DNA of 64,000 nt from Thioalkalivibrio sp. ALJ21 (GTDB lineage: Bacteria > Pseudomonadota > Gammaproteobacteria > Ectothiorhodospirales > Ectothiorhodospiraceae): NCBI RefSeq assembly GCF_000378605.1, contig NZ_KB905156.1:849209-913208 (forward strand). Reading direction: 5' to 3'. The notes beneath the pieces were generated by a model. That model was not told the DNA's origin and searched no databases. It saw only the letters and a list, made by a program, of their open reading frames with translations. The position numbers were made by a program, and so were the translations under genes. Of this stretch, positions 23,499-43,599 are shown in pieces. How positions within the stretch are numbered: position 1 is the first letter of the stretch; each line of letters starts with the position of its first letter.

Positions 23499-23702
23499 AT
23501 GAAAGCCGACATTCATCCGAACTATCACAACGTCAAGGTCATCTGCAGCTGCGGCACGCAGTTCGAGACCCGCTCCACTCTCTCGAAGGACGAGATGCAC
23601 GTGGACGTGTGCTCGCAGTGCCATCCGTTCTACACCGGCAAGCAGAAGATCGTTGACACCGCCGGTCAGGTCGACAAGTTCAACCGCCGCTTCGCATTCT
23701 AG
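23499..23702 (+). CDS. rpmE: 50S ribosomal protein L31, zinc-binding form
   Basis: 67-aa ribosomal protein starting [18 protein letters not shown]. It keeps the zinc ligands as CSC (residues about 16-18) and [10 protein letters not shown] near residue 40, so it is the Zn-binding (C+) L31 rather than the zinc-independent paralogue used under zinc starvation. The stop codon TAG spans the left boundary of the structured repeat at 23701: its T is genomic and its AG are the first two bases of the element. Confidence 0.98.
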
Positions 23703-23970
23703 GGAGACGCTGGTCTAATCGCGCGTCCGCGCTCGAGTCGCTTTTGCGTGCGAACAAGGCGCGGTGACTGCCGTGCAGTCATTCTGCACAAAGGAACCGC
23801 AACGCCGTTCTCGCGCAAAAGCGGCCGAGCCCCTTCGGGGTTGGCACCCCAGGTTCCCCGATCCGGCGTTGCGGCCCTTACCGGTAGAACCACTACCGGC
23901 TGCGCACCGCGCCTTGTCTCGGAAAACCTGGGGTGTCAACGCGGACGTGCGATTAGACCAGCGTCTCCCT
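23701..23970 (-). repeat. Structured palindromic element, copy A (270 bp)
   Basis: Non-coding repeat bounded by 31-bp inverted repeats at 23701-23731 and 23940-23970 (30/31 complementary), flanked by TCT/AGA which extend the symmetry. Internally it carries the helix arms 23921-23939 and 23841-23859 and a hairpin with stem CCGGTAG/CTACCGG (23881-23899). A 13-bp inverted pair ACAAGGCGCGGTG / CACCGCGCCTTGT is also present. It lies in reverse orientation relative to copies B and C. No transposase gene or credible ORF lies inside. It separates rpmE from the SNase-like gene by only a few bases on each side. Confidence 0.92.
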
Positions 23971-23988
23971 AGAGTGCGTTCGCGCCCG

Positions 23989-24849
23989 ATGGCGCGAGGC
24001 GGTTTCTGGCGGGGCGTCCAGCGGATGCTCGTGCCAAGCAACGAGGGCGTCCTGCGGGGCGCCCTCGTTTGTTTGGTCGCGCTGTCGGCGTGGCTGCTCG
24101 CGCCGGTGGCCGCGGCGCAATGTGCGCTGGAGGACCACGATCCGCGCGATCTGCAGCGCGTGACGGTCGAGCGTGTGTGGGCGCCGGATGCCCTGGAACT
24201 GGAAGACGGGCGACACATCCGTCTGCTGGGTCTGGCACCGGCGGCCCCGCTTCCGCCGGTTGCGCCACAGCTGCTGCCAGTCGGCTTCGGGCTGGACTTG
24301 CGCGAGTCCCTGGAGGAACGCCTGCGCGGCGTCGATCAGCGCCTGGTGCTGTTGCCGGGGCGTCCGGCCCGCGACGCCTATGGCCGCCTGCGCATGCATG
24401 CCTGGATCGACGATGGGCCGCTGCCGGCGGCCAGCCTGATTGGGGATGGTCTGGCGATGCCGCGCCCCGGGCCGGAACCGGGGCCCCTGGACGAGTGCTA
24501 CTACGGGGCCGAGGCTGCGGCAAGGGAAGCGTCGCGAGGGCTCTGGCTGGAGCGGCTCGAGGCCTTCCCGGTCGGCTGGCTGGAGCCGCCGCGCGAGCGC
24601 TCGCAGGGGCGGCTGCGGGTCCAGGGCGAGGTGATCGACGTGCGGGTGCGCGACCCGCACTGGGTCCTGGTCCTGGACGGCCCACTGGATCTGCTGATCT
24701 CCGGGGATGACCGCGATTTTTTCGAGGATCTGGAACCACGCTCACTGCTGGGTAACACCGTTGTTGCACGCGGCGCGGTGTATCCTTGGAGGGAGCGAGG
24801 GCGGATGCGTATCCGCCACCCCTTTGATCTCGAGGTGCTTGATCCATGA
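23989..24849 (+). CDS. Exported SNase-like (thermonuclease-fold) protein, catalytically doubtful
   Basis: 286-aa protein from ATG 23989 (a GTG at 23974 or ATG at 24025 are alternatives). The hydrophobic segment ending VAAAQ (about residues 28-44) is a signal peptide or anchor. Residues about 55-195 resemble a staphylococcal-nuclease OB fold: ERVWAPDALELEDGRHIRLLGLAP corresponds to the strand with the metal and Arg site, and DAYGRLRMHAWI to the YGR motif. The usual Asp/Asn and Glu after the LLG motif are missing (LAPAAP), so nuclease activity is questionable. It begins 19 bp after repeat copy A and is coupled by ATGA to the M48 protease gene. Confidence 0.7.
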   Translation: MARGGFWRGVQRMLVPSNEGVLRGALVCLVALSAWLLAPVAAAQCALEDHDPRDLQRVTVERVWAPDALELEDGRHIRLLGLAPAAPLPPVAPQLLPVGFGLDLRESLEERLRGVDQRLVLLPGRPARDAYGRLRMHAWIDDGPLPAASLIGDGLAMPRPGPEPGPLDECYYGAEAAAREASRGLWLERLEAFPVGWLEPPRERSQGRLRVQGEVIDVRVRDPHWVLVLDGPLDLLISGDDRDFFEDLEPRSLLGNTVVARGAVYPWRERGRMRIRHPFDLEVLDP

Positions 24850-25703
24850 ACGCCCTGTCCCGCCTGTTTCCCCGTCGCTGGGCGGCGCTGGTCCTGACGC
24901 TGCTGATCGGCGCGGGCCTGGCCGTCGCGCTGCCGGGCTGTACCACCAACCCGGTCACCGGGCGCTCGCAGCTGATGCTCGTTTCCGAGAATCAGGCAAT
25001 CGACGCCTCGCGCACGGCCTATGTGGAGATGCTCGCCCCGGCGCGCGAGGAGGGGCGGGTGGACGCCGACCCCCAGATGACCGCGCGCGTACAGCAGATC
25101 ACCGAGCGCGTGGTGGCGCAGGCGGTCAAGTACCGCCCCGAGACCGCCGACTGGGATTGGGAGATTCGCGTGATCGAGGCGCCGGACACGGTCAATGCCT
25201 TCGCCATGGCGGGTGGCAAGATGGCGATCTACTCCGGCATCATCGATCAACTGGAACTGACCGACGACGAACTGGCGCAAATCATCGGCCACGAGATCGC
25301 CCATGCGCTGTCCGCGCACACGGCCGAGAAGATGTCGGTGGCCCTGGCCAGCAATCTCGCGGTAGCGGGCTATGCGATGACCGGCGACCGCTCGCCCGTG
25401 GCGCTGACTGGCGCCGCCCTGGGGGCTGCGCTCGCGGTACAGCTGCCGCACAGCCGCCGGATGGAGGCGGAGGCCGACCGCATCGGGATCGAACTGGCCG
25501 CGCGGGCTGGTTATGATCCGGACGCGGCCGCGAGCCTGTGGCGCAAGATGGCGGAACAGGCGAACGGGAGTCATCCGGTGTTCCTGAGTACGCACCCGGC
25601 GCCCGAGTCGCGCCAGCGCGACCTGACCCGCATGGCCGACGAGTTCCGGCCGCTGTACGAACAGGCCCGGCGCTCCTCGGTGCCGACCCACCCGGTCAAC
25701 TGA
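24846..25703 (+). CDS. M48-family metalloprotease lipoprotein (LoiP/YcaL-like)
   Basis: 285-aa zinc metallopeptidase of the cell envelope. The N-terminus has a lipobox LPGC (Cys32) followed by TTNPVTGRSQ, typical of the family. Active site HEIAHALSAH with zinc His149 and His153 and catalytic Glu150; the third ligand is probably the Glu of RRMEAEADRIG (about residue 206). Such proteases act in outer-membrane protein quality control. Start codon overlaps the SNase-like gene stop (ATGA). A 13-bp hairpin without T-tract follows the stop. Confidence 0.92.
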   Translation: MNALSRLFPRRWAALVLTLLIGAGLAVALPGCTTNPVTGRSQLMLVSENQAIDASRTAYVEMLAPAREEGRVDADPQMTARVQQITERVVAQAVKYRPETADWDWEIRVIEAPDTVNAFAMAGGKMAIYSGIIDQLELTDDELAQIIGHEIAHALSAHTAEKMSVALASNLAVAGYAMTGDRSPVALTGAALGAALAVQLPHSRRMEAEADRIGIELAARAGYDPDAAASLWRKMAEQANGSHPVFLSTHPAPESRQRDLTRMADEFRPLYEQARRSSVPTHPVN

Positions 25704-25704
25704 C

Positions 25705-25735
25705 GGGTTACGGGGCCGGAGCGGCCCCGTAACCC
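25705..25735. terminator. Perfect 13-bp hairpin after the M48 protease gene
   Basis: GGGTTACGGGGCC / GGCCCCGTAACCC with a GGAGC loop starts right after the stop codon. There is no T-run, so it may stabilise the 3' end or act only weakly as a terminator. Confidence 0.5.
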
Positions 25736-25778
25736 CGCTGTATTCTGACAGACACTGCTTGAAAGGCCCCGCCACACC

Positions 25779-26999
<1,221 letters not shown>

Positions 27000-27025
27000 A
27001 CCCACCTCCGTCAGACGAGGGAAGC

Positions 27026-27949
27026 ATGCAGAAAATCGCCATCATCGGAGCCGGACGCGTCGGCGAATCCACCGCCCAGTTCCTGGCCCGGCGCGATGTC
27101 GCCCGCGAGATCGCGTTGCTGGACGTGCGCGAGGGTGCGGCGGCCGGTGCGGCGCTGGATATCCAGGAGACCGCGCCCCTGCTGCGTTTCGATACGCGCC
27201 TGATCGGCAGTCACGGACCCTCGGTGATCGCCGGTGCGGAACTGGTGATTGTCACGGCCGGGCTGCCGCGCAAGCCGGGTATGTCGCGCTCCGATGTCCT
27301 GGACAAGAACGTCGAGATCCTCGACCAGATCCTGCAGGATATCCTTGTCCATGCCCCGCAGAGCCGCATCCTGGTGGTGTCCAACCCGGTGGACGTGCTG
27401 ACCTACCGCGCCTGGCAGAAGACCGGCTGGAGCCGCGATCGGATCTTCGGGCAGGCGGGGGTGCTGGATACCTCGCGCATGGAGGCCTTCATCGCCCTGG
27501 AGACGGGGCTTTCCACCCACGACATCCAGGCACTGGTGCTGGGTGGTCATGGCGATGCGATGGTGCCGCTGCTGCGCTATTCCAGTGTCAATGGCGTGCC
27601 GCTGCACCACTTCATGGACCAGGCGAAGCTCGACAACATCGTCGAGCGTACCCGCCACGGGGGTGCCGAGATTCTCGCCCTGAAACAGACCTCCAGCGCC
27701 TATGGCGCGCCCGCCGCGGCCATCGCCGAGATGGTCGAGGCGATCGCCGTGGATCGCCGGCGCGTGCTGCCGACCGTGGCCCTGCTGGAAGGTGAGTACG
27801 GGGAACGCGACGTGGCCATGGGCGTGCCCTGCATCCTCGGCCAGGGCGGCATGGAACGGGTGATCGAGCTGGAACTGGACGCGGATGAACGCGCGGCCTT
27901 CGACCAGTCCATCGCCGGGGTGCGCAAGGACCTTGAACGCCTGCACTGA
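27026..27949 (+). CDS. mdh: Malate dehydrogenase (LDH-like type)
   Basis: 307-aa NAD-dependent dehydrogenase. N-terminal GAGRVGESTAQFLA, Asp at the end of the second strand (LLDVREG), TAGLPRKPGMSR (mobile loop; Arg pair as in malate- rather than lactate-specific members), SNPVDVLTYRA, and the catalytic LGGHGDAMVPL. It belongs to the tetrameric LDH-like MDH group rather than the E. coli-type dimer. TCAGACGAGGGAAG precedes the ATG. The downstream exonuclease-like frame starts inside its 3' end. Confidence 0.95.
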   Translation: MQKIAIIGAGRVGESTAQFLARRDVAREIALLDVREGAAAGAALDIQETAPLLRFDTRLIGSHGPSVIAGAELVIVTAGLPRKPGMSRSDVLDKNVEILDQILQDILVHAPQSRILVVSNPVDVLTYRAWQKTGWSRDRIFGQAGVLDTSRMEAFIALETGLSTHDIQALVLGGHGDAMVPLLRYSSVNGVPLHHFMDQAKLDNIVERTRHGGAEILALKQTSSAYGAPAAAIAEMVEAIAVDRRRVLPTVALLEGEYGERDVAMGVPCILGQGGMERVIELELDADERAAFDQSIAGVRKDLERLH

Positions 27950-28880
27950 GTCGCACCCGGGGCCGCCGCGCCCGACCCTGACGCTGGTCGACTCCAGCAT
28001 CTTTGTCTTTCGTGCCTGGTTCGCGCGCGGGCTGGACCCGGATCCTCTCGGACGTCCGGGCGGGGCCGTGCACGGGCTGGTGCATTCGCTCTGCCAGTGG
28101 CTGCCCGCCTGCGCCCCGGGCCCGATCGCCTTTTGTTTCGACGAGAGCCTGCGCCAGGGTTTTCGCCATCGGCTCGACCCCACCTACAAGGCCCACCGCC
28201 CGCCGGCGCCACCGGAACTGCGCGAGCAGTTCACGTGTATCCGGGAGCTTCTCGGTCAACTCGGCTTCCGGACCCTGGCCCATCCCGAGTACGAGGCCGA
28301 CGACCTGATCGCCAGCCTGGCGCGTGCCGGCCGGACCGCGGGCTGTCGCATCGAGGTCAAGAGCGCGGACAAGGACCTGACCCAGGTCATCCTCGGTGAC
28401 CAGGACCGGATGCATGATCCGGAGCGCGGGACCGCGCTGGATCGCCGCGCGATCGAGAAGCGCTTTCGCATCCGTCCGGAACAGGTTGCCGACATGCTCG
28501 CCCTGGCGGGCGATGCCAGCGACAACATCCCGGGTATCGAGGGCGTGGGCCCCAGGACCGCGGCGCGAATCCTTCGCCGCCTGGGCGACTTGGGAACGGT
28601 GCTGGCCGAACCGCCGGCCGTGGCACGCTGCAATATCCGCCGGGCCGACGTGGTGGCCGCGCGCATTGCCGAGCAGGCGGACCGGCTGCGCTTGTCGCGC
28701 CGTCTGACCGGGCTGGTGGACCGCATCCCCGACCTGCCGGGGATCGAGGCCCTGAGCCCTACCGGGCCGAAACCCGATGCCGCGCGCTGGCTCGCGGAAC
28801 TCGGGGTGGCGCGCGATTATCATGGTCGCCTGCTGGCGGCCGCCGGTGCCTGGCGGTCCACGACCCCGGAGATTGCATGA
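27885..28880 (+). CDS. 5'-3' exonuclease, DNA polymerase I N-domain family
   Basis: Stand-alone flap/5'-3' exonuclease related to Pol I N-terminal domain and E. coli ExoIX (Xni). Acidic metal sites visible: LTLVDSSIFVFRAW near the start, CFDE, EYEADDLIASLA, KSADKDLTQ, and the helix-hairpin-helix GDASDNIPGIEGVGPRTAARIL. The start is uncertain: ATG 27885 lies 65 bp inside mdh and gives a non-conserved leader. TTG 27933 would give about 315 aa and a family-like N-terminus soon after. The stop overlaps the next start (ATGA). Confidence 0.85.
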   Translation: MNARPSTSPSPGCARTLNACTESHPGPPRPTLTLVDSSIFVFRAWFARGLDPDPLGRPGGAVHGLVHSLCQWLPACAPGPIAFCFDESLRQGFRHRLDPTYKAHRPPAPPELREQFTCIRELLGQLGFRTLAHPEYEADDLIASLARAGRTAGCRIEVKSADKDLTQVILGDQDRMHDPERGTALDRRAIEKRFRIRPEQVADMLALAGDASDNIPGIEGVGPRTAARILRRLGDLGTVLAEPPAVARCNIRRADVVAARIAEQADRLRLSRRLTGLVDRIPDLPGIEALSPTGPKPDAARWLAELGVARDYHGRLLAAAGAWRSTTPEIA

Positions 28881-29542
28881 GCCCACGTTCTGTTCTCTAC
28901 GCCATCCTTGCCGCGGGCCTGGTGTGGCTGCTGCTGGTCAGTGCGCAGGTGCAGGCGCATCCGCATGCCTGGATCGACCTGGAGATCACGCTGGAACGCG
29001 ATGGCGAGGGGCGCATCAGCCACATGCTGCATCGCTGGCGCTTCGACCCGACCTACGGGCAGTACCTCTACGAGGACGCCCTGGCGCATCAGGAGGGCGC
29101 GACCGAAGACGAGAAGCTGCAGGCGCTCGCCCGCGAGATCCTCGGCAACCTCGAGGAATACGAGTGGTACAGCCATGTCGAGGCCGGCGGGCGCGAGGTG
29201 GACGTCGTTGCCGAGCCCGATCCGTCCATGCGCATGGAAGAGGGGCTGCTGTTCTTCCGTTTCCGCCTGGCGCTGGACGAGCCAGTCGATGTGGGTTCCG
29301 AGACCCTGGCGTACAAGGTCTACGATCCGACCTATTTCATCGAGCTCCTGCACGAGGAGCCGGCCGGTACGCGCATCATCGAGGCCGACGGGCTCGCGGC
29401 CGCGGGCTGCAGTGCAGAGCTGGAGCGCCCCCGCCCGGATCCCCAACTCGTCGCCAAGGCCATGATGCTCGATTACGGGGCCACGGTGGACTATGACCTG
29501 GGACGCCATTTCGCCCAGCGCGTAACCGTGCGCTGCGATTAA
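28877..29542 (+). CDS. Exported DUF1007 family protein
   Basis: 221-aa protein with a signal peptide (hydrophobic residues 7-28, ending VQAHPHAW). The mature N-terminus [12 protein letters not shown] is the DUF1007 hallmark, and the histidines suggest metal binding. In other bacteria DUF1007 genes often neighbour nickel/cobalt (NicO/RcnA-type) exporters, but none is seen here. It is coupled on both sides: ATGA with the exonuclease gene and TAATG with rluE. Function unproven. Confidence 0.85.
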
Positions 29543-30084
29543 TGTCCCGAATCGTGTTGTTCCACAAGCCCTGGGGCGTGCTGCCGCAGTTCACCGACCT
29601 GGAAGGGCGCCCCACGCTGGCGGATTACATCGACATCCCCGGGGTCTACCCGGCCGGGCGGCTGGACCGCGACAGCGAGGGGCTGATGGTGCTGACCGAC
29701 GACGGGCGTCTGAATGCGCGGCTGACCCAGCCGCGCCACAAGACCAGCAAGACCTACTGGGTCCAGGTGGAGGGCGAGCCCGATGACGCCGCCCTGGAGG
29801 CCCTGCGCACCGGGGTGGACCTGAAGGACGGCCGCACGCAGCCGGCGAAGGTCGAGCGCATGGCTCCGCCCGATCTGCCGGAGCGCGACCCGCCCGTACG
29901 CTTTCGCAAGTCCATCCCGACGACCTGGCTCGCGCTGACGCTGCACGAGGGCCGCAACCGCCAGGTGCGGCGCATGACCGCCGCGGTAGGGTATCCGACC
30001 CTGCGCCTGGTGCGTTACCGGGTAGCCTCCTGGACCCTGGATGGCCTGGAACGCGGGGACTATTCCGTGATCGAACGCGGGTGA
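29542..30084 (+). CDS. rluE: 23S rRNA pseudouridine synthase RluE
   Basis: 180-aa RsuA-family pseudouridine synthase; E. coli RluE makes Psi2457 in 23S rRNA. Catalytic motif [10 protein letters not shown] with the nucleophilic Asp (about residue 41), LPQFTD near the N-terminus, [13 protein letters not shown], and the C-terminal [14 protein letters not shown]. There is no N-terminal S4 domain, as for RluE rather than RsuA/RluB. Start ATG shares its A with the upstream TAA. Confidence 0.92.
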
Positions 30085-30226
30085 TACCGGTCACGGGTTC
30101 TATGCTCGAGGATCGCGGGATTGTCGCGGAATGCGGCCCGGCCGGTGCGAAATCACCACAAGGCCATTGCGCCTGCTACAGGTCGTGCGGAATATGAACG
30201 GATCAGACAAGCGAGAACGCAATCCG

Positions 30227-32287
30227 ATGCGCCTGCCCAGGATACTCACCACGGGTCTGACCGGTCTGGTCATGGCCTTCGCCGCCGGGGCCCCGGCGGC
30301 TAACCCGGCCCCGACGGGGATGGTCTTCGAACGCAGCCTGTTCCTGCATGCCGAACGCGCCCTGAGCCGCGGCGACATGACGGCCTATCGCAATGCCCGC
30401 AGCACGCTCGAGGGTTATCCGCTGACGCCCTACCTGGATCATCGCGAATTGGCGCGCGACCTGGGGCGCGCGGACCCCGATGCCGTGCGTGCCTTTATCG
30501 AAGAGCACGACGACACCCCGCTGGCCGGCCAGTTGCGCAGCAACTACCTCTCGTATCTGGCTCGCGAAGAGGAGTGGTCACGGTATATCGACTTTGCCGA
30601 CGATGGCCGCGACCTCTCCGTTACGCAGGACTGCCAGCGGCGCAAGGCACTGATCGAGACCGGCAACACCTCGGCGGCGATCGAGGATATGGACTCGATC
30701 TGGCTGCACGGCCAGTCCCGCCCCAGTGCCTGTGATCCGGCGCTTAAGGCCTGGCGCGATGCCGGCGGGTTGACGGACGAACTGGCCTGGGAGCGTTTCG
30801 CCCTGGCGATGCAGGCGCGCCAGACCGGGCTCGCGAGCTACCTGCGCCGCTACCTGGCCAGCGCCGATCGCGACTGGGCGGAGCGCTGGCTGGAGCTCGA
30901 GTCGCGGCCGTCACGGGTGGTCGAGGTCGACTTCCGCGCGGACGATCACCGCTCGGCCGAGGCCATGCTGGAACAGGCGTTCAAGCGCTGGATTCCGCAG
31001 GACCTGGATGCGGCCCTGAAGGGCTGGGAGGAGCGTGGCGAGCGCCTGGGATTCCCGGCCGAGACGGCCCGCGAGATCGAACATGCGCTTGCGCTGCGTC
31101 TCGCCCTGCGTTTCCGCTCCGAGACGCTGGAGTTCATGGAGGGCCTGGACACCGAGGTCTTCGACGACCAGCTGCGCCAGTGGCAGGTACGCGCCGCACT
31201 CCATGATGGCGATTGGGAGACGGTCAAAAGCGCGATCCGCTCCATGGGCCGCGATGCCCGCGACGAAACCGCCTGGCAGTACTGGTACGCGCGGGCGCTG
31301 GAGCAGCTGGGCGATGCCGAGGAGGCGCGCTTTTTCTACGAGCGGGCGGCGCGCGAGCGCAATTTCCACGGGTTCCTGGCCGCCGATCGTCTGGGCCAGC
31401 CTTACCGCATTGCGCACCAGCCCCTGCAACTGGCCAATGGCGCGCGCGAATCGATCATGGAGCGCCCGTCCATGCAGCGCATGCGCGAACTGGTGGCGCT
31501 GGATCGCTACGCCGAGGCGCGCCGCGAGTGGACCCGCACGGTGGCCAACATGGAACCGCCCGAGCTCGAGGCTGCGGCTGCCGAGTTCGCCGACTGGAAC
31601 TGGTACGACCGGGCGATCTTCACCATCGCGCGGGCCCGCAACTGGGACGATATCGAGCTGCGCTTCCCGCTGGCCTTCGATTCCGTGATCGTCCCGGGCG
31701 CGGAAAAACAGGGCATCGACCCGGCCTGGGCGATGGCGATCGCCCGCCAGGAGAGCGCCTTTTTGCACGACGTGCGCTCCGGGGCCGGTGCGCTGGGGGT
31801 CATGCAGATCATGCCGGCGACCGGGCGCTCGATCGCCTCCAGCGCCGGGGTCCGGGTCAACTCCGATTGGGACATCCTCGACCCAGCGACCAATGCGACG
31901 CTGGGGACCTATTACCTGCGGCGCAACCTGGATCGCTTTGGCGGGCACAGCCTGCTGTCCACGGCGGCCTACAACGCCGGGGCGCATCGCGTGCGCTCCT
32001 GGCTGCCGGACGACGGCGAGATGGACGCCGATATCTGGGCCGAGCTGATCCCGTTCTCGGAGACCCGCGATTATGTGCGCCGGGTATATGCCTACCAGAT
32101 CGTCTATGCGGTGCGTCTGGGGCAGGACCCGCCGTCGCTGTCGCAGCTGCTGTTTCCGGTGACGCCAGAGTCCAAACTCGCGGCGAGCCGCGAGGATCAC
32201 CTCCGGGCATTGCGCAACATGCGCGAGGATCTCGCGCTCGGCCGCGCCTTCTGCGACGCGCCCGGCTACACCGAAAACGCCTGCTGA
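30227..32287 (+). CDS. slt: Soluble lytic murein transglycosylase Slt
   Basis: Periplasmic enzyme cleaving the MurNAc-GlcNAc bond to give anhydromuropeptides. The start chosen, ATG 30227, gives 686 aa opening with a signal peptide (MRLPRILTTGLTGLVMAFAA...AANP); ATG 30194 is an alternative. A long superhelical (U-L) domain of about 480 residues is followed by the catalytic SLT domain: AIARQESAFLHD with catalytic Glu, GALGVMQIMPATG, and TAAYNAGAHRV. Length and order match E. coli Slt70. Last gene before the palindromic repeat region. Confidence 0.93.
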   Translation: MRLPRILTTGLTGLVMAFAAGAPAANPAPTGMVFERSLFLHAERALSRGDMTAYRNARSTLEGYPLTPYLDHRELARDLGRADPDAVRAFIEEHDDTPLAGQLRSNYLSYLAREEEWSRYIDFADDGRDLSVTQDCQRRKALIETGNTSAAIEDMDSIWLHGQSRPSACDPALKAWRDAGGLTDELAWERFALAMQARQTGLASYLRRYLASADRDWAERWLELESRPSRVVEVDFRADDHRSAEAMLEQAFKRWIPQDLDAALKGWEERGERLGFPAETAREIEHALALRLALRFRSETLEFMEGLDTEVFDDQLRQWQVRAALHDGDWETVKSAIRSMGRDARDETAWQYWYARALEQLGDAEEARFFYERAARERNFHGFLAADRLGQPYRIAHQPLQLANGARESIMERPSMQRMRELVALDRYAEARREWTRTVANMEPPELEAAAAEFADWNWYDRAIFTIARARNWDDIELRFPLAFDSVIVPGAEKQGIDPAWAMAIARQESAFLHDVRSGAGALGVMQIMPATGRSIASSAGVRVNSDWDILDPATNATLGTYYLRRNLDRFGGHSLLSTAAYNAGAHRVRSWLPDDGEMDADIWAELIPFSETRDYVRRVYAYQIVYAVRLGQDPPSLSQLLFPVTPESKLAASREDHLRALRNMREDLALGRAFCDAPGYTENAC

Positions 32288-32313
32288 CGGGCCGGGGCTG
32301 CTTCGCACGTTAC

Positions 32314-32602: not shown

Positions 32603-32711
32603 CGATCCAGACGTTCGTGGCAATGGTTGAAGGCTAGGTGTTCCGACATCCTGGGCACGCGCGGCCTTCGGCCCTGGCGTGCCGCGCCCGCCAGCGGGCG
32701 CCAGATCCCAT

Positions 32712-34485: not shown

Positions 34486-34588
34486 GCACCGCACGAGATG
34501 CGGATCGAGGGCTGTCAGCCCGGGGCTGTGAGGATTCGGCCTCATCGCGGGCTTGTCGCCCCGGGGCGGGGCGGCTAAGGTTCCGTCC

Positions 34589-36264: not shown

Positions 36265-36878
36265 GCGAGGCATTCCCGGATTCCCGTTCGCGCCGGGCGC
36301 GCCAGGCGGAGCTCAAACGCGACCTCGAATTCGCCGATACCCTGGCGGGCGAGCCCCTGCGCTTTCGTACGACCTGGGGACTTTTTTCGCCGCGCCGGAT
36401 TGACGATGGCACGCGCATGCTGCTGGATCGCATCGAGGTGCAACCGGATGACGATTGCCTGGACCTGGGCTGTGGCTATGGCCCGATCGGCCTGACCCTG
36501 GCACGCAAGGCCCCGCAGGGCACAACGACGCTGGTGGATACCAATTTTCTGGCGGTCGAATACAGTCGGCGCAACGCCGAGCTCAACGGCATCACCAACG
36601 TCGAGTGCATGAACAGCAACGGTTTTGCCCAGATCCGCGACCGGCACTTCGATCTCGTGGCCTCGAACCTGCCGGCCAAGGTGGGCCGGGAGATGCTCTA
36701 CACCTACCTGCTGGATGCCCACGAGCAGATGAACCCCGGTGGCCGCATCTATGTCGTAACCATTACCGGGTTGCGGCGGTTTATCGAGAAGGGGTTCAAG
36801 GAAGTGTTCGGCAACTACGACAAGGTCAAGCAGGGCCGCGAATATACCGTCGCGGCCGCCGAACGCGAGCCCGACTGA
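36261..36878 (+). CDS. Class I SAM-dependent methyltransferase (MTS/RsmC-like domain)
   Basis: 205 aa from a GTG overlapping the purK stop (GTGA). SAM-binding motif I DLGCGYGPIGL (about residues 68-78), acidic VDTN at motif II, and motif IV as ASNLPAK where RsmC/RlmG-type enzymes have N-P-P-[FY]. The altered NLPA makes the base-methylation target uncertain. The phrase FRTTWGLFSPRRIDDGTRML near the N-terminus resembles the RsmC-family pre-SAM strand. Target could be rRNA or a small molecule; context (purEK) does not resolve it. Confidence 0.78.
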   Translation: MSEAFPDSRSRRARQAELKRDLEFADTLAGEPLRFRTTWGLFSPRRIDDGTRMLLDRIEVQPDDDCLDLGCGYGPIGLTLARKAPQGTTTLVDTNFLAVEYSRRNAELNGITNVECMNSNGFAQIRDRHFDLVASNLPAKVGREMLYTYLLDAHEQMNPGGRIYVVTITGLRRFIEKGFKEVFGNYDKVKQGREYTVAAAEREPD

Positions 36879-36880
36879 CC

Positions 36881-37546
36881 ATGGTCGAGGGGGCGGGCGA
36901 ACTCCCGGTTGCGCTCCGAGTGCTGTCCGCCCTGCTTCTGGGGACGGGGCTGCTGATCATGCTGCGGCGCATGCCCTGGGAGGCATTTTTTGTTCCCGGT
37001 CGCACGCAGCTCTTTGTGATTGCCACGCTGTGTCTGCTGCTGATCTGGGGTCTGCGCGCACAGACCCTGGAGGGCCTGGCGCTGCACTTTCTCGGCATGG
37101 CCACGATCACGCTGATGTTTGGCTGGCAGCTGGCGATCCTGATGGTGTTTCTGGTGGTCGCGGGGCTGGCCCTGCTGGGGGCGCTGCCGCTTGCGGCCTT
37201 TCCGCTGACGGTCTTGCTGGCGGGCGTGCTGCCGGTGGCCGTGACCTGGGGCCTGCTGCGGGCGACCGAGGCCTGGCTTCCCCGTCACATGTTCATCTAC
37301 CTGTACGGGGTCGCGTTCCTCGGCGGGGCCCTGACGGTGGCGGCCACGGTGCTGAGCTCGGCGGTGATCTACGGGCTGTTCACCGACCTGGCCTGGGGCG
37401 ATATCTACCGCGATTACGTGCGCTATCTGGCCCTGCTCGTGCTGCCCGAGGCCGTCCTCAACGGCATGGTGGTGACCGGCCTGGTGATGGTGCGCCCGGA
37501 GTGGCTGGCGACCTGGTCGGACGAGCGCTACGTGCACGGGCGCTGA
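36881..37546 (+). CDS. Integral membrane protein of the CbiM/ECF-permease-like (COG3235) type
   Basis: 221-aa protein with about six transmembrane segments and almost no soluble domain. Features seen in this group: GLRAQTLEGLALHFLG with TLMFGW, LLAGVLPVAVTWGLL, LPRHMFIYLYG, and the C-terminal LPEAVLNGMVVTGLVMVRPEW. Related proteins are annotated as ECF-type transporter permeases for metals or vitamins, but the substrate is unknown and no ECF ATPase is adjacent. Begins 2 bp after the methyltransferase stop. Confidence 0.65.
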   Translation: MVEGAGELPVALRVLSALLLGTGLLIMLRRMPWEAFFVPGRTQLFVIATLCLLLIWGLRAQTLEGLALHFLGMATITLMFGWQLAILMVFLVVAGLALLGALPLAAFPLTVLLAGVLPVAVTWGLLRATEAWLPRHMFIYLYGVAFLGGALTVAATVLSSAVIYGLFTDLAWGDIYRDYVRYLALLVLPEAVLNGMVVTGLVMVRPEWLATWSDERYVHGR

Positions 37547-37680
37547 CCGCGGGGCGCGACGGAATCGGCATATCCCTATCGGTTTTTATGTTAATGCACC
37601 GTTCAGGGAAGCCCTGCTAACGTTCGCTTCACGATGGGGCGCAACCCCGTTGGTGAGCTGCAAACGAGGAGACCACAACA

Positions 37681-38004
37681 ATGAAAATCAAGCTGTTCGT
37701 TCTGGCCGGGATCGCAGGGAGTGTGCTGATGCTGTCCTCCGCCGCGCAGGCGGCCGACATCCAGGCTGGCCAGTCCAAGTACCAGTCCACCTGCCTGAGC
37801 TGCCATGGGGCCGAAGGCAAGGGTCAGGCGATCTTCCCCGCGCTGGCCGGTCGTGACGCCGAGTACGTAACCGACAAGCTCGAGCGCTACCGCGCCGGTG
37901 AAGAGATCGGTTCCCATACCGGTCTGATGCGCCCGCATGCCCAGGCGCTGAGCGATGACGACATCGCCAACGTGGCCGCCTTCATCGAGTCCGAATTCAA
38001 CTGA
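37681..38004 (+). CDS. Class I c-type cytochrome, periplasmic
   Basis: 107 aa with a signal peptide (residues 1-23, SAAQA-AD) and one haem motif CLSCHG (about residue 39). The distal ligand is probably the Met of GLMRPHAQAL. It resembles small c553/c4-half-type cytochromes that carry electrons to terminal oxidases. A 134-bp leader and a GC-rich hairpin terminator make it monocistronic. Confidence 0.92.
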   Translation: MKIKLFVLAGIAGSVLMLSSAAQAADIQAGQSKYQSTCLSCHGAEGKGQAIFPALAGRDAEYVTDKLERYRAGEEIGSHTGLMRPHAQALSDDDIANVAAFIESEFN

Positions 38005-38031
38005 TTCGGGCTACCGCGAAGCGGCAAGCCG

Positions 38032-38059
38032 ACGGGCCGGGGTTTCCCCGGCCCGTTTG
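38032..38059 (+). terminator. Hairpin terminator after the cytochrome gene
   Basis: Perfect 11-bp stem ACGGGCCGGGG / CCCCGGCCCGT with a TTT loop; only a short T-run follows. It lies 28 bp after the stop codon. Confidence 0.7.
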
Positions 38060-38184
38060 CGTTGGAGGGCCTGTCGTATGCGCCGCCTTTTGCCTGGCAT
38101 GGCGGCATCCGGTAAAGTTCCGCGGTTCCGAGAGCGTGGCCGATGGTCGGTCCCGCTATCCCAGAGATTCCTGCGAGGCTTCCC

Positions 38185-38874
38185 ATGGCACAACCCGATT
38201 TCATTGCCCCGTCCATCCTCTCCGCCGACTTCGCCCGTCTGGGCGAGGAAGTCGACAACGTCCTGGCCTCCGGCGCGGACATCGTCCACTTCGACGTGAT
38301 GGACAACCACTATGTGCCGAACCTGACCATCGGCCCGCTGGTCTGCGATGCCCTGCGCAAGCACGGCGTTACCGCGCCGATCGACGTGCACCTGATGGTC
38401 AAGCCGGTGGACCGCATCATCCCGGACTTCGCCCAGGCCGGTGCCAGCTACATCACCTTCCACCCGGAGGCCTCCGATCATATCGACCGCACCCTGCAGC
38501 TGATTCACTCCGAGGGCTGCAAGGCGGGGCTGGTGTTCAACCCGGCTACCCCGCTGTCCTACCTGGAATACGTGATGGACAAGGTCGACATGATCCTGCT
38601 GATGTCGGTGAACCCGGGCTTTGGCGGCCAGAAATTCATTCCGGCCACCCTCGACAAGCTGCGCGCCGCACGCAAGATGATCGACGAATCCGGGCGTGAC
38701 ATCCGCCTCGAGATCGACGGCGGCGTGAAGGCCGACAACATCCGCGAGATCAAGGCCGCGGGTGCCGATACCTTCGTCGCCGGTTCCGCGATCTTCGGCG
38801 CGTCCAGCGACTCCGACGCGAACCGCTACAACAGCATCATCCAGCAGATGCGCGACGAACTGGCCAAGGCCTGA
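38185..38874 (+). CDS. rpe: Ribulose-phosphate 3-epimerase
   Basis: 229-aa TIM barrel interconverting ribulose-5-P and xylulose-5-P in the pentose phosphate and Calvin cycles. [32 protein letters not shown] (metal/substrate site), [17 protein letters not shown] and EIDGGVK are conserved. The ATG at 38185 is the start that matches the family. 25 bp upstream of gph, as in many proteobacteria. Confidence 0.98.
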
Positions 38875-38899
38875 TTCGCCACATCCGACGGAGACCGGG

Positions 38900-39583
38900 A
38901 TGTCCCTCAAGCGCCCCCGCATGATCCTGATCGACCTGGACGGCACGCTGATCGACAGCGTGCCGGACCTGGCCTATAGCGTGGATGCCATGATGCGCGA
39001 GCTGGGCCTGCCCGAGCGCGGCGAGGCGGCCGTGCGCAACTGGGTCGGCAACGGGGTGGAACGGCTGGTCAAGCGGGCGCTGATCAATGCGCTCGACGGC
39101 GAACCGGACCCGGAGGCCTTCGAGCGCGCACTACCCGTCTTCATGCGCATCTACCAGGAGAACACCGCCGGGCGCTCGCCGCTGTACCCGGGGGTGCGCG
39201 AGGGGCTGGACCAGTTGAAGGCCGCCGGTTACCGCCTGGGCTGCGTGACCAACAAGGCCGAGCGCTTCACCGTGCCACTGCTGCGCGAAAAGGGCATCCT
39301 CGACGACTTCGAGATCGTGGTCGCCGGCGACGCCCTGCCGCAGAAAAAGCCCGACCCGGCGCCGCTGCTGCACGCGGCGAAGGAACTGGGTGTCGACCCC
39401 TCCGAGTCGCTGATGGTCGGGGACTCGAAGAGCGACGTGAAGGCGGCGCGCGCGGCTGGCTTCCAGATCGTTTGCATGACCTACGGCTACAATCACGGCG
39501 ACGATATCCGCGACGAGCACCCCGACGCGGTACTCGACCGCCTGGATGAACTGCCGGAGCTGCTGCCTGCCCGGGCGGCCTGA
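38900..39583 (+). CDS. gph: Phosphoglycolate phosphatase Gph (CbbZ-like)
   Basis: 227-aa HAD-superfamily hydrolase removing 2-phosphoglycolate, a by-product of Rubisco oxygenation and of DNA repair. HAD motif I LIDLDGTLIDSVPDL (nucleophile Asp about residue 12), motif II VTNKAE, motif III QKKPDP, motif IV VGDSKSDVKAA. Sits in the conserved rpe-gph-trpE order; GGAGAC precedes the start. Confidence 0.95.
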   Translation: MSLKRPRMILIDLDGTLIDSVPDLAYSVDAMMRELGLPERGEAAVRNWVGNGVERLVKRALINALDGEPDPEAFERALPVFMRIYQENTAGRSPLYPGVREGLDQLKAAGYRLGCVTNKAERFTVPLLREKGILDDFEIVVAGDALPQKKPDPAPLLHAAKELGVDPSESLMVGDSKSDVKAARAAGFQIVCMTYGYNHGDDIRDEHPDAVLDRLDELPELLPARAA

Positions 39584-39675
39584 GGATGATCGCAATGGAC
39601 CGGACAATGGGGCGATGGCGAAACGGCGACTGACCGTTCGCGCCGTCTGCCCCTCTCTTGTCAGGAACCCTTGTG

Positions 39676-41163
39676 ATGACCCCCGAACAGTTCGACGCAC
39701 TGGCCCGCGAGGGCTACAACCGCATCCCGCTGGTGCGCGAGGTCCTGGCGGATCTCGAGACCCCGCTGTCCATCTTTCTTAAGCTGGCCAACCGGCCGTA
39801 TTCCTACCTGTTCGAATCGGTGCAGGGCGGGGAGCGCTGGGGCCGTTACTCCTTTATCGGCCTGCCGGCGCGAACCCGGGTGCGGGTGCACGGCCATGAC
39901 ATCACGGTGGAGACCGACGGTGACGTGGTCGAGCAAACCACCGAGACTGACCCGCTGGCCTGGATCGAGGCCTACCAGGCGCGCTTCAAGGTCGCCGAGC
40001 TGCCGGGCCTGCCGCGCTTCACCGGCGGCCTGGTCGGCTACTTCGGCTTCGAGACCGTACGCCTGATCGAGCCGCGTCTGGAAGGCCCGGAAAAGCCCGA
40101 TGCCCTGGGGCTGCCGGACATCCTGCTGATGGTCTCCGAGGAGGTCGTGGTCTACGACAACCTTTCCGGGCGGCTGTATCTGGTGGTGCATGCCGATACC
40201 TCGCGCCCCGACGGGCAGGCCGTGGCGGCCGAACGTCTCGACGAGCTGGAGAGCCGGATCGGCGAGCCGCTGGTGCCGCCGGAGGACCCGCCGCACCCGC
40301 ACGCGGTGCCGGAGTATGTGCCGGGCTGGTCGGCCGAGGGTTTCAAGGCGGCCGTGGCGCGGGCGCAGGAATACATCATGGACGGCGACGTGATGCAGGT
40401 CGTCCTGGCGCAGCGCATGAGCGTGCCGTTCTCGGCACCCCCGTTGGATCTCTACCGTGCGCTGCGGGCGCTGAACCCGTCGCCCTACATGTACTACCTG
40501 GACCTGGACGACCACCACGTGGTCGGCGCCTCGCCGGAGATCCTGGTGCGGCTGGAGGATGACCGCGTGACCGTGCGTCCGATCGCCGGGACCCGCCCGC
40601 GCGGGCGTACCGAGGAGGAGGACCGCGCGCTGGAGGTCGAGCTGCTGGCGGACCCGAAGGAGCGCGCCGAACACCTGATGCTGATCGACCTCGGGCGCAA
40701 CGACGTCGGCCGAGTCTGCGAGATTGGCTCGGTGGAGGTGACCGACACCATGAGCATCGAGCGCTACTCGCACGTGATGCACATCGTCTCCAATGTGGAG
40801 GGGCAGCTTGCTCCGGGGCACTCGACGATGGACGTGCTGCGCGCGACCTTCCCGGCCGGCACGGTCTCCGGCGCGCCGAAGATCCGCGCGCTGGAGATCA
40901 TCGACGAGCTGGAGCCGGTCAAGCGCGGGCCGTATTCCGGTGCGGTCGGTTACCTTTCCTGGTCCGGCAACATGGATACCGCGATCGCAATCCGCACGGC
41001 GGTGCTGCACGACGGCGAACTGCACATCCAGGCCGGCGCCGGGGTGGTGCATGACTCGGTGCCCGAGAACGAGTGGCAGGAGACCCTGAACAAGGGGCGC
41101 GCGGTCGTACGGGCGGCCGAACTGGCGCTGGGCGGGTTGGGGCCGCGCAGGCACCGTGGCTGA
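39676..41163 (+). CDS. trpE: Anthranilate synthase component I TrpE
   Basis: 495 aa from ATG 39676, which has AGGAA about eight bases upstream; TTG/GTG codons just before it are in frame but less likely. Chorismate-binding core with [57 protein letters not shown], and [18 protein letters not shown]. The N-terminal tryptophan-feedback LxxS-type motif is partly visible ([20 protein letters not shown]). Followed after 7 bp by a small reading frame and then trpG. Confidence 0.97.
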
Positions 41164-41170
41164 GGGCGTG

Positions 41171-41281
41171 ATGACCGACGCAGAACGGGCAGCGCAAGCG
41201 CGGTTGTCGGGCACGCCGGGCGCACTCGCGCTAGTCTGCGATCTGTACCGGTACGGTGCGGCGGAGGGACTCCCGGCATGA
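41171..41281 (+). CDS. Possible 36-codon small gene between trpE and trpG
   Basis: ATG 41171, seven bases after the trpE stop, opens a 36-codon frame ([20 protein letters not shown]...) that ends with TGA sharing ATGA with the trpG start. GAGGG precedes the ATG. The tight coupling and correct spacing suggest it is translated, perhaps only to deliver ribosomes to trpG. No similarity recognised; a chance frame in GC-rich DNA is possible. Confidence 0.35.
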
Positions 41282-41871
41282 TCCTGATGATCGACAACTA
41301 CGACTCGTTCACCTTCAATCTGGTCCAGTATCTGGGCGAGCTGGGGGCGGAGGTCGAGGTGCACCGCAACGACCAGATCACGCCCGACCAGGTCGCCGAG
41401 CTGGCGCCTGCCGGGATCATGATCTCGCCCGGCCCCTGCACCCCGAATGAGGCGGGTGTGTCCATGGAGGTGATCCGCCGCTTTGCCGGGCAGGTCCCGA
41501 TCCTCGGGGTCTGTCTCGGACATCAGGCGATTGGCCAGGTATTCGGCGGGCGCGTGGTGCGGGCCCGCGAGATCATGCACGGCAAGACCTCCCCGGTGCA
41601 TCACACCGGGGTAGGGGTCTTTGCGGGCCTCGAGAATCCGCTGGAGGCCACGCGCTATCACTCCCTGGTGGTGGAGTCGGCCTCGCTGCCCGATTGCCTG
41701 GAGGTCACCGCCTGGACCGAGCGCGAGGACGGTACCCGCGACGAGATCATGGGCCTGCGCCACCGTGAACTGGACGTCGAGGGCGTGCAGTTCCACCCCG
41801 AATCCATCCTGACCCGGCAGGGGCACGAGCTCCTCGACAACTTTCTGCGCCGCCTGCCCCAGCCGGCGTGA
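41278..41871 (+). CDS. trpG: Anthranilate synthase component II TrpG (glutamine amidotransferase)
   Basis: 197-aa class I glutamine amidotransferase supplying ammonia to TrpE, possibly also to Pab[20 protein letters not shown] at the N-terminus, [12 protein letters not shown], nucleophile in [16 protein letters not shown] (Cys about 79), and HPESILT with the His-Glu dyad. The stop lies 5 bp before repeat copy B; without that insertion trpD would be expected next. Confidence 0.97.
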
Positions 41872-41875
41872 GCGG

Positions 41876-42159
41876 AGGGAAGCACTGGTCAATGTACGCA
41901 CCCGCGTTGGTGCCCCATGTTTTCCGAGACCAGGAGCACCGTGCAGCGGGTAGTGGTTCTACCCGTAAGCGGCGCAACGCAGGATCGGGGAACATGGGGC
42001 TCCAACCCCACAAGCTATTCAATGCGGGGGCTCGGCCGCTTTTGCGCGCGCACGGCGTTGCGGCTCCCTTGTGCAGAATGACTGCACGGCGGTCCCCGCG
42101 CCTTGTTCGCACGCAAAAGCGACTCGAGCGCGGGCGCGTACATTGACCAGTGCTTCCCT
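41876..42159 (+). repeat. Structured palindromic element, copy B (284 bp)
   Basis: 31-bp terminal inverted repeats at 41876-41906 and 42129-42159 (30/31 complementary). Internal helix arms at 41907-41925 and 41987-42005 (18 of 19 paired counting G-T), and a hairpin CGGGTAG / CTACCCG with TGGTT loop at 41947-41965. A central stretch around 42010-42026 has a 14-nt longer loop than copy C. Same orientation as copy C. It begins 5 bp after trpG and overlaps the probable MFS start codon. Confidence 0.93.
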
Positions 42160-43342
42160 AGAACGCCGCACCCGGCTGCGTTTCGCGCTGCTGGTCGCAC
42201 CCCTGGCGCTACTGGCGCCGTTCTCGCTGGATACCTACCTGCCGTCGTTCCCGGCGATGGCCGCGGACCTGTCCGTCGACGGTGCGGCGATGCAGGCGAC
42301 GCTGTCCTCCTACCTGGTCGCCTTTGCCCTGGCCACTCTGGTGGCCGGGCCGCTGTCGGATGCCTTTGGCCGGCGTCCGGTCGTGCTGTGGGCTCTGGTG
42401 GCCTATGTCGCGACATCCGCGCTGCTGGTGGTGGCGGTGGAGTACTGGCAGGTGGTCGGGCTGCGTGTCGGTCAGGGCTTCGCGGCGGCGGCGGGCGTCG
42501 TCGTGAGCCGTGCCCTGGTGCGCGACCGTTTCGACCCCATTGATGCGCGGCGTGTATTCGCGATTGTGACGATCATGTTCGCGATGGGGCCTGCGATTGC
42601 GCCCATCCTGGGCGGCTATCTGCAATCCGCGTTCGGCTGGCGCTCGGTGTTTGCGTTCCTGGTGCTCTACGGGGTCGTGCTGCTGCTGGCCGCGCGTCTG
42701 TGGCTGCCGGAGACCCTGCCCCCGGTCGGGCGCGTGTCCAGCCGGCCGCGGCTGGTGCTCGGGCGCTATGCGGGCACCCTGCGCAATGTGCAGTTCCTGC
42801 AGCCGGTGCTGGTGCATACCACCCTGTTCGGGGCCAAGTTCCTGTTCGTCGCGGCCTCGCCCGCGCTGATCTATGTCCATCTCGGAGGCGGCGAGCGCGA
42901 TTTCTGGTGGCTGTTCGCGCCCATGGTGGTCGGGCTGATGCTGGGGGGCGTGGCCTCCGGCTGGAGTGCCGGGCGTGTGGCGCCCGAGGTCACGGTACGC
43001 ATCGGCTTGTTGCTCACCGGGATTTCACTGGCACTGGTGGGCTGGGCGGCGCTGGACCCGGAGCCCTCGGTGGCGGCGGTGACCCTGCCGTTTGCCCTGT
43101 ACAGCTTTGCCCTGGCCTTGGGGATGCCCTCGCTGACCCTGCTGGCGCTGGACTGCTATCCGGGCGCGCGCGGCATGGCCTCGGCGATGCAGGCCTTTAT
43201 CCAGCTCGGGTTTGCAGCCCTGCTCACGCTCTTCGTGGTCGACTGGCTGGATGACGTCCTGCTGCACCTGGTCGCCGGAGCGGCGGTCATCTGGCTCTTT
43301 GCTGCCCTCGTCTGGTTTGGTGGAGGATTAGGGAAACGTTGA
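42143..43342 (+). CDS. MFS multidrug efflux transporter, Bcr/CflA type
   Basis: 399 aa from TTG 42143, the start giving a family-like N-terminus (TSASLERRTRLRFALLVAPL); the ATG at 42071 would lie wholly within the repeat and add a stretch copied from it. About 12 transmembrane segments. Bcr/CflA hallmarks: LAPFSLDTYLPSFPAMAADL in helix 1, LSDAFGRRPVVLWALVAY (loop 2-3 motif A), and ILGGYLQSAFGWRSVFAFL. Both ends are in repeats: the start in the right terminal repeat of copy B and the stop (GGG AAA CGT TGA) in the left terminal repeat of copy C. It interrupts trpG and trpD. Confidence 0.88.
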   Translation: MTSASLERRTRLRFALLVAPLALLAPFSLDTYLPSFPAMAADLSVDGAAMQATLSSYLVAFALATLVAGPLSDAFGRRPVVLWALVAYVATSALLVVAVEYWQVVGLRVGQGFAAAAGVVVSRALVRDRFDPIDARRVFAIVTIMFAMGPAIAPILGGYLQSAFGWRSVFAFLVLYGVVLLLAARLWLPETLPPVGRVSSRPRLVLGRYAGTLRNVQFLQPVLVHTTLFGAKFLFVAASPALIYVHLGGGERDFWWLFAPMVVGLMLGGVASGWSAGRVAPEVTVRIGLLLTGISLALVGWAALDPEPSVAAVTLPFALYSFALALGMPSLTLLALDCYPGARGMASAMQAFIQLGFAALLTLFVVDWLDDVLLHLVAGAAVIWLFAALVWFGGGLGKR

Positions 43343-43599
43343 CCCCTATGCACACTCGCGTTGGTACCCCAGGTTTTCCGAGACTAGGCGCGGTGCGCAG
43401 CCGGTAGTGGTTCTACCGGCAAGGGCCGCAACGCAGGATCGGGGAACCTGGGGTGCCAACCCCGAAGGGGCTCGGCCGCTTTTGCGCGGGAACAGCGTTG
43501 CGGCTCCCTTGTGCAGAATGATTGCACGGCAGTCACCGCGCCTTGTTCGCACGCAAAAGCGACTCGAGCGCGAGTGTGCATAGGGGTCAGCGTTTCCCT
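43330..43599 (+). repeat. Structured palindromic element, copy C (270 bp)
   Basis: 31-bp terminal inverted repeats at 43330-43360 and 43569-43599 (30/31). Internal helix arms 43361-43379 and 43441-43459 pair over all 19 positions if G-T is allowed. The hairpin CCGGTAG/CTACCGG is at 43401-43419. Smaller stems CCCC-GAA-GGGG (43460-43470) and GTGCA/TGCAC (43511-43527). Further complementary pairs: AGGCGCGGTG (43386) with CACCGCGCCT (43534), and GCTTTTGCG (43478) with CGCAAAAGC (43552). Its first 13 bases include the MFS stop codon. Confidence 0.93.

What the first reader, a model, noticed from the sequence alone, without database searches (positions are those of the whole stretch)
23701..43599. 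Three-copy structured element whose ends co-vary: conserved as pairing, not as sequence
Copies at 23701-23970, 41876-42159 and 43330-43599 each have 31-bp terminal inverted repeats complementary at 30 of 31 positions. The terminal sequences themselves differ strongly between copies: I count 21/31 (A-B) and 19/31 (A-C). The changes at one end are mirrored at the other. The internal 19-bp helix has at least two compensating pairs between copies B and C (A-T to G-C, and G-C to T-A), and the 7-bp hairpin has one (C-G to G-C). By contrast, the single-stranded TGGTT loop is unchanged. This pattern points to selection on a folded RNA or single-stranded DNA, or to end-to-end copying during replication. 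It is unlike ordinary MITEs, whose ends are fixed by transposase recognition.
Basis: partly seen in the sequence, partly recalled or inferred. Interest (0 to 1): 0.87.

Follow-up and report, generated by a model that had tools for sequence, protein, structure and literature searches.

The report
Self-mirroring miniature transposon family
The three repeats are copies of a small parasitic DNA element that lacks its own enzyme, fits an IS5-type jumping gene found in sister species, and folds back on itself so that a change in one arm tends to be copied into the other, which can be mistaken for selection on a folded RNA.

Summary
The elements belong to a family with at least 51 copies in this genome, found in 16 of 30 genomes of the genus (apparently Thioalkalivibrio) and 0 of 17 others of the order. 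It is a MITE of the IS5 family: ends GGRARCRCTGA, 4-bp target duplications, two clean empty sites. A matching 1.2-kb IS was found in five sister genomes; no DDE_Tnp_1 match in this one. What is unusual: of 145 distinct copies, 124 carry the downstream-type IS end at both termini, 19 the upstream type, none one of each, 2 unscored. At orthologous sites arms mostly change one side at a time and are sometimes re-matched; 3 of 24 sites are inverted in place; a 297-bp copy corresponds to a 24-bp palindrome. G·U and A·C mismatches balance in the outer 20 pairs, though not at positions 21 and 23. Best explanation: DNA template switching, or inverted-repeat recombination, on a palindromic MITE. New variant of a known kind.

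The parts
23703..23968 (-). Copy A, 266 bp, upstream-IS-end type at both arms (type 2: GGAGACGCTGGTCTAATCGC)
   Evidence: strand defined by the GTTGG-left orientation used for the family
23699..23702 (.). CTAG, left target-site duplication of copy A; TAG is the stop codon of the preceding ORF (23256-23702)
23969..23972 (.). CTAG, right target-site duplication of copy A
41878..42157 (+). Copy B, 280 bp, downstream-IS-end type at both arms; the orthologous copies in two sister genomes are 310 bp, with two extra tip modules
42158..42161 (.). CTAG at the right end of copy B; the left counterpart is not a match (GGAG, 41874-41877)
43332..43597 (+). Copy C, 266 bp; same site occupied in two sister genomes, inverted in one of them (L074)
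43328..43331 (.). TTAG, left flank of copy C; the right flank is CTGG (43598-43601), read as a decayed duplication
43332..43360 (+). Left arm of copy C; the ORF 42071-43342 runs into it and uses a stop codon inside it
43569..43597 (-). Right arm of copy C

Best explanation
The repeats are a palindromic MITE of an IS5-family insertion sequence. SHOWN: an IS (about 1.2 kb, DDE transposase) in sister genomes has the same GGRARCRCTGAT ends and 4-bp flanking duplications; two orthologous empty sites show insertion with a 4-bp duplication (CTAG, CAAG); by a nearest-of-two rule each scored MITE copy carries the same type of IS end at both termini; arms differ between copies but mostly match within a copy; copies are found inverted at the same site, a hairpin tip occurs in both orientations, and a full-length copy corresponds to a 24-bp near-palindrome at the same site in another genome. 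INFERRED: the IS5 transposase, supplied by a resident or transient IS, moves the MITE, recognising only the outer ~11 bp. Because the whole element folds on itself, DNA synthesis can switch from one arm to the other (or inverted-repeat recombination can act). This copies mutations from arm to arm, inverts the segment between the arms, and sometimes deletes the middle. Just inside the recognised end each locus therefore carries a private, mirrored sequence. Exchange among the many copies mixes the core.
For: Empty sites: own L040:2507-2786 v L147 (CTAG) and own L038 v L140 (CAAG), flanks overlapping by exactly 4 bp. Exact 4-bp flank matches in 33 of 126 copies (orthologues counted apart) v mean 17.4, maximum 28, in 1000 re-pairings. 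IS: eight copies in five genomes (G010 one, G012 two, G021 one, G022 one, G029 three); of the seven with both flanks in view, five have identical 4-bp flanks (ctag twice, gtag, ttaa, taag), two do not. The L188 protein scores 319 bits to NF033581 IS5 family (cut-off 140) and has Pfam DUF772 + DDE_Tnp_1. MITE end type 1 matches the IS downstream end, type 2 the upstream end, exactly over 17-18 bp in the best copies; 124 copies 1/1, 19 copies 2/2, 2 unscored at one arm, 0 hybrids of 145. Positions 13 and 14 are paired in 131 and 133 of 145 copies v 61 and 64 expected if the arms were independent. Orthologous sites: of 480 position-pairs 453 unchanged, 23 changed in one arm, 4 in both; three of the four end matched, at three sites, one with an intermediate (own G/G, G025 T/G, G004 T/T). 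In-place inversion at 3 of 24 sites. Tip 3 inverted in 4 of the 28 copies caught by two patterns. L172 297 bp v own L061 24 bp. Template switching gives both arm homogenisation and spacer inversion (PMC8604942).
Against: No DDE_Tnp_1 match was found in this genome, nor in G004 or G025 (no other transposase family but Y1_Tnp was searched), so present mobility here is not shown. Only 33 of 126 copies keep an exact target duplication, and several other candidate empty sites were not clean (extra or missing bases). Within orthologous sites one-sided changes outnumber two-sided ones 23 to 4 (3 of the 23 come from one indel; one of the 4 is left as a G/A mismatch), so in-situ correction is slow and some matching may be made at transposition instead. 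Two of the three mirrored sites could also be conversion by another copy. Template switching and recombination between inverted repeats leave the same traces and were not separated. Flips could also come from excision and reinsertion. That the 24-bp palindrome is the derived state is inferred.
Confidence: 0.8

Rival explanations
1. The element is a structured non-coding RNA (or a terminator or mRNA-stabilising structure) whose folding is under selection; compensatory changes are fixed because they keep the fold.
For: Very stable three-way-junction fold of copy C; 26 of 104 pairs with double changes; TGGTT loop in 29 of 30 aligned copies; plus strand folds slightly better in 89 of 145 copies, minus in 55; over 29 arm positions 117 mismatches would be G·U on the minus strand v 44 on the plus strand; inner stems of mid-length copies carry 379 G·U read as plus v 310 read as minus; tandem neighbours run with the element 36 times, against it 18 times.
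Against: These hints point to opposite strands. The 117 v 44 imbalance is nearly all positions 21 and 23 (19 and 56 copies with one shared mismatch); positions 1-20 alone give 32 v 36 by hand tally, and 13 v 10 and 10 v 10. Inner stems of short copies give 372 v 368. Tip 3 occurs inverted, whole elements are inverted in place at 3 of 24 sites, and 16 of 24 orthologous sites differ in length by 10 bp or more, mostly tip modules. No Rfam family at the gathering threshold.
Confidence: 0.08
2. Ends are re-copied from one another during transposition itself (a hairpin or single-stranded intermediate repaired from one arm), so each new insertion starts perfectly mirrored and then decays.
For: The arm sequence is largely stable between orthologues (outer 20 alignment columns of the left arm 2.2% divergence) but differs 20.5% between paralogues, as if set before or at insertion; no hybrid of the two IS ends among 145 copies.
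Against: Mirrored change with the copy staying at the same site is seen at three orthologous sites, once with an intermediate, so no transposition is needed; the transposase is a DDE enzyme, for which a foldback intermediate would be unusual (recalled, not tested).
Confidence: 0.2
3. The mirroring, flips and core exchange are due to RecA-dependent recombination and ectopic gene conversion among the copies rather than polymerase template switching.
For: In 32 of 46 orthologous pairs the core is closer to a paralogue in at least one of the two genomes than to its orthologue (one orthologue is compared with many paralogues, which favours this); 16 of 24 orthologous sites differ in length by 10 bp or more.
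Against: Conversion from other copies would homogenise the arms between loci, yet the arms are the most locus-specific part; single-base mirrored changes and inversion of a tip on a short stem seem too short for RecA homology (inference).
Confidence: 0.25
4. A REP/REPIN-like element moved by a Y1 (HUH) RAYT transposase.
For: The genome has two Y1_Tnp matches, and REPs are palindromic.
Against: Four-base target duplications and a matching DDE IS; the Y1 locus L101 carries unrelated GTAGGAG... repeats.
Confidence: 0.02

Closest known systems
IS5-family MITEs (non-autonomous IS5 derivatives)
   Same: Terminal repeats and target duplication shared with an IS5-family element found in sister genomes; no transposase of its own; dispersed, many copies.
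   Different: Both ends are of one IS-end type rather than one of each; the arms are mirrored for ~30 bp although the sequence inside bp 11 differs between copies; almost the whole element folds on itself.
Arm homogenisation and spacer inversion of inverted repeats by template switching (PMC8604942 abstract and passages; PMC8794818 passages)
   Same: Arm homogenisation, loop or spacer inversion, one mechanism making 'compensatory' changes without selection.
   Different: In the passages read it concerns short inverted repeats in yeast genes and RNA genes; here it appears to act on a whole transposon family, including inversion of a ~200-bp interior.
REPs / REPINs with RAYTs (PMC3733652, passages; PMC3116915, listing)
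   Same: Palindromic, non-coding, many copies per genome.
   Different: No GTAG tag, no link to the Y1 locus examined, 4-bp target duplications, DDE transposase partner.
QMITE, Chunjie and other bacterial MITEs (review PMC10969869, passages)
   Same: TIRs, direct repeats, stable stem-loop if transcribed, size variants.
   Different: The passages read do not mention arm mirroring, in-place inversion or reduction to a 22-26-bp palindrome.

Membership tests
[quoted passage not shown]
[quoted passage not shown]
   two clean 4-bp sites, other candidates not clean; 33 of 126 exact flank matches v 17.4 expected
IS5-family derivative | An autonomous-type IS5-family element with the same ends and target | tested here: met
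   in five sister genomes, not found in this genome
IS5-family derivative | Mobilised in trans by that transposase | not testable with these tools
   inferred from ends and target only
IS5-family derivative | One IS end at each terminus (simple internal-deletion derivative) | tested here: not met
   0 of 145 copies carry one of each end type (2 unscored at one arm); so not a simple internal-deletion derivative, which does not bear on mobilisation
Structured non-coding RNA | Strand-specific tolerance of G·U over A·C in helices | tested here: inconclusive
   balanced in the outer 20 pairs (13 v 10, 10 v 10) and in inner stems of short copies (372 v 368), 379 v 310 in mid-length copies; 117 v 44 over 29 positions through two shared mismatches
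Structured non-coding RNA | Match to a curated RNA family | tested here: not met
   Rfam gathering threshold, whole window; only an SAH riboswitch elsewhere
Structured non-coding RNA | Transcript | not testable with these tools
   no RNA data
REP/REPIN | GTAG tag and linkage to a RAYT gene | tested here: not met
   Y1 locus L101 carries other, GTAG-type repeats; the second locus L102 shows no such ends by eye

The most novel reading that the evidence does not exclude
A transposon whose ends are self-templating: because the whole element is a foldback palindrome, damage or mutation in one transposase-binding end is rewritten from the other, so the element keeps both ends functional and can swap both ends together between the two end types of its parent IS while keeping its core (at least 4 end-type changes on a core tree without support values, v 15 or more with shuffled labels). 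Palindromy would be an adaptation of a parasite that has no enzyme of its own, and its decay product is a 22-26-bp palindrome.
Probability: 0.25. Interest if true: 0.7.

Novelty: new variant of a known kind. Interest (0 to 1): 0.5.

Why it matters
Covariation of paired bases is treated as strong sequence evidence for a functional RNA. Here a mobile DNA family with about 50 scored copies in one genome shows strong covariation that is better explained by copying between DNA arms, and the G·U v A·C balance, in-place flips and orthologue comparison offer a way to tell the two apart. With dozens of copies at shared sites in sister genomes, the family would let rates of arm correction, inversion and reduction be measured in natural bacterial populations.

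Tried and rejected
RNA-family membership (none). Y1/HUH mobilisation (different repeats). A guide-like role for the variable tip loops was looked at by listing outer arms beside the three tips: some loops resemble the arm sequence by eye, but no consistent match was seen and no test was run, so it is dropped. Position relative to genes: 54 tandem, 32 divergent, 32 convergent of 118 scored, close to chance, with tandem genes co-directed with the element 36 v 18; crude ORF calls, orthologues counted apart. Folding energy: plus better by a mean of 1.5 of about 176 kcal/mol, too small to argue from. The 64-bp palindrome at L044 v the 281-bp copy in L168 was first taken as a second collapse, but the relative holds ~350 extra flanking bases there, so it is not a clean case. 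A Drosophila Galileo paper (PMC4168063, passages) was checked for TIR homogenisation and had nothing on it. The covariance-model and pair-count tools were not used because DNA search found the family directly.

Rows dropped before counts: L001, L006, L033 (duplicates of window copies or of L040), L082 and L059 (no clear end), L040:6590-6691 (no end found); copies of 250 bp or less and identical sequences were left out of the 145 distinct copies; arm pairs matching at under 22 of 29 were left out of the mismatch tally; orthologous pairs without both flanks matched were left out, except those at copy B. In one search, 33 of the 80 fetched IS loci were examined and 20 gave ends with exact 4-bp duplications; the two Thioalkalivibrio loci gave none under that rule. 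The loose first control (best 28 of 31) had not excluded the copies themselves; one search repeats it with them excluded.

Rivals two and three overlap with the best explanation, so the odds do not sum to one.
Full report
OBSERVATION. The three copies exist as described: 31-bp arms complementary at 30 of 31 in each, arms differing between copies at about a third of positions. Outside the copies, 300,000 random placements in the window never exceeded 20 of 31. Copy C folds far better than shuffled sequence on either strand.

CENSUS. A DNA search of the own genome with copy C, which scored 40 of 72 candidates, returned 40 places aligned over 216-299 bases and three short ones. A core 22-mer gave 47 places with up to 3 mismatches and none for the reversed control. 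The family is in 16 of 30 genomes of the genus and in 0 of 17 other genomes of the order. In a wider set of 58 genomes one genome of another family gave a single marginal hit, E 2.2e-4. Most full copies fall into length classes near 266, 280, 295 and 310 bp because three hairpin tips each occur in a short form or in a form about 15 bp longer.

ENDS AND TARGET. The outer bases GGRARCRCTGA are near-fixed across 145 distinct copies. Flanks are rich in CTAG, TTAA and CTAA. Two orthologous empty sites show a 4-bp duplication exactly: CTAG (own L040:2507 v L147) and CAAG (own L038 v L140); other candidate empty sites in that call had extra or missing bases. Over 126 copies, orthologues counted apart, 33 have identical 4-bp flanks (21 CTAG, 8 TTAA), against a mean of 17.4 and a maximum of 28 in 1000 random re-pairings.

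PARTNER. This genome has no DDE_Tnp_1 match. In the genus, eight ~1.2-kb elements in five genomes carry an open DDE_Tnp_1 frame between GGAAACRCTGATCAATGG and GGARACRCTGATTTAATCC or near variants; of the seven with both flanks in view five have identical 4-bp flanks and two do not. Only two of the proteins were translated whole, and one of these looks shortened in the middle. The L188 protein scores 319 bits to NCBIfam IS5 model NF033581 (cut-off 140) and has DUF772 plus DDE_Tnp_1. All five genomes carry the MITE. Of 33 of these loci examined, 20 gave inverted GG...CC ends with exact 4-bp duplications, mostly starting GGAARCRCTGA. The genus name rests on the ALJ24 hits.

WHAT IS ODD. In the IS the two ends diverge after about 12 bp. 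In the MITE they do not: by a nearest-of-two rule on arm positions 15-20, 124 of 145 copies carry the downstream type (GATCAATG) at both termini, 19 the upstream type (GATTTAATC) at both, 2 were left unscored at one arm, and none has one of each. On a tree of the core the end type changes at least 4 times, against 15 or more for shuffled labels; the core recombines and the tree has no support values, so this is a hint that both ends have been replaced together more than once.

HOW THE ARMS EVOLVE. Positions 12-19 are paired in 131-145 of 145 copies against 61-136 expected if arms were independent. At 24 sites occupied in at least two of three genomes, 453 of 480 arm position-pairs are unchanged, 23 changed in one arm (3 of these from one indel) and 4 in both. 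Three of the four end matched, at three sites; the fourth leaves a G/A mismatch. One is caught halfway: own G/G, G025 T/G, G004 T/T. Copy C itself shows a mirrored C-to-A difference in G004. So change is mostly one-sided, and re-matching happens but is slow. The left arm's outer 20 columns diverge 2.2% between orthologues and 20.5% between paralogues, whereas in 32 of 46 orthologous pairs the core is closer to a paralogue in at least one of the two genomes.

FLIPS, TIPS AND REDUCTION. At 3 of 24 orthologous sites the element is inverted between genomes, copy C among them. Tip 3 is in the opposite orientation in 4 of the 28 copies caught by two patterns. Length differs by 10 bp or more at 16 of 24 sites, mostly through tip modules. 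A 297-bp copy in G025 corresponds to a 24-bp near-palindrome of the two ends in this genome; that the short form is derived is inferred. The 22-bp palindrome of the ends (up to 2 mismatches) occurs in 15 genomes, all carriers (one carrier, G024, has none), and in none of the 14 non-carriers; most were not traced to a full-length orthologue.

RNA OR DNA. Selection on an RNA should tolerate G·U but not A·C on the transcribed strand. In the outer 20 pairs the counts are 13 v 10 (57 short copies) and 10 v 10 (51 mid-length copies). In inner stems the G·U load read as plus v minus strand is 372 v 368 in short and 379 v 310 in mid-length copies; that count is biased because each strand's structure was chosen by folding. 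Over all 29 arm positions of 145 copies (poorly aligned arm pairs left out), 117 mismatches would be G·U on the minus strand, 44 on the plus strand and 44 neither; the excess is nearly all positions 21 and 23, where 19 and 56 copies share one mismatch, which I read as inherited. The plus strand folds slightly better in 89 copies, the minus in 55. Rfam gives nothing here. Genes around the elements are tandem 54, divergent 32, convergent 32, and tandem ones run with the element 36 v 18 (crude). These weak hints disagree on the strand, so I do not take them as a case for an RNA, but they do not close the question.

MECHANISM. Template switching between arms of an inverted repeat is reported to cause both arm homogenisation and spacer inversion (PMC8604942, abstract and passages) and can create compensatory changes (PMC8794818, passages). 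That pair of signatures is what is seen. Recombination between inverted repeats and re-copying at transposition are not excluded.

NOVELTY. Seven searches of the open-licence PubMed Central library, on MITEs, IS5, Thioalkalivibrio, palindromes, arm homogenisation and template switching, listed no paper whose title or abstract start describes this family or a bacterial MITE with these dynamics; several lists were cut (for example 12 of 590), and ISfinder was not available. I file it as a new variant of IS5-related MITEs.

Noticed in passing
window 10727-10808 (-): SAH riboswitch above the Rfam gathering score (56.3 v 37 bits).
   Followed up: no
L101 (own genome C1 around 1011737-1011967): A Y1 (RAYT-like) transposase gene surrounded by GTAGGAG... 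palindromes, a REP-like family unrelated to the finding; GTAG REPs in Thioalkalivibrio are mentioned in PMC3733652 (passages).
   Followed up: partly
L067:1079-1254; related pieces in L041, L045, L052: A second repeat of about 176 bp with the same kind of ends (GGAAACGCCGAT... and GGAAGCGCTGAA...), apparently absent at the orthologous place in L130; possibly another MITE of the same IS.
   Followed up: partly
flanks of copies: Common imperfect flanks are CCAG on the left (14 of 126) and CTGG on the right (10 of 126); if they come from CTAG, the change with the adjoining G is CTAGG to CCAGG, which looks like very-short-patch (Vsr-type) repair bias (recalled, not tested).
   Followed up: no
L176:1002-1311 and 1316-2515 (G029): MITE-type ends and the autonomous-type IS sit side by side with one CTAG between them.
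   Followed up: no
window 23700-23702 and 43340-43342: Copy A's target duplication contains the stop codon of the upstream ORF (by eye ribosomal protein L31), and copy C supplies the stop codon of the upstream ORF (by eye an MFS transporter) from inside its left arm.
   Followed up: no
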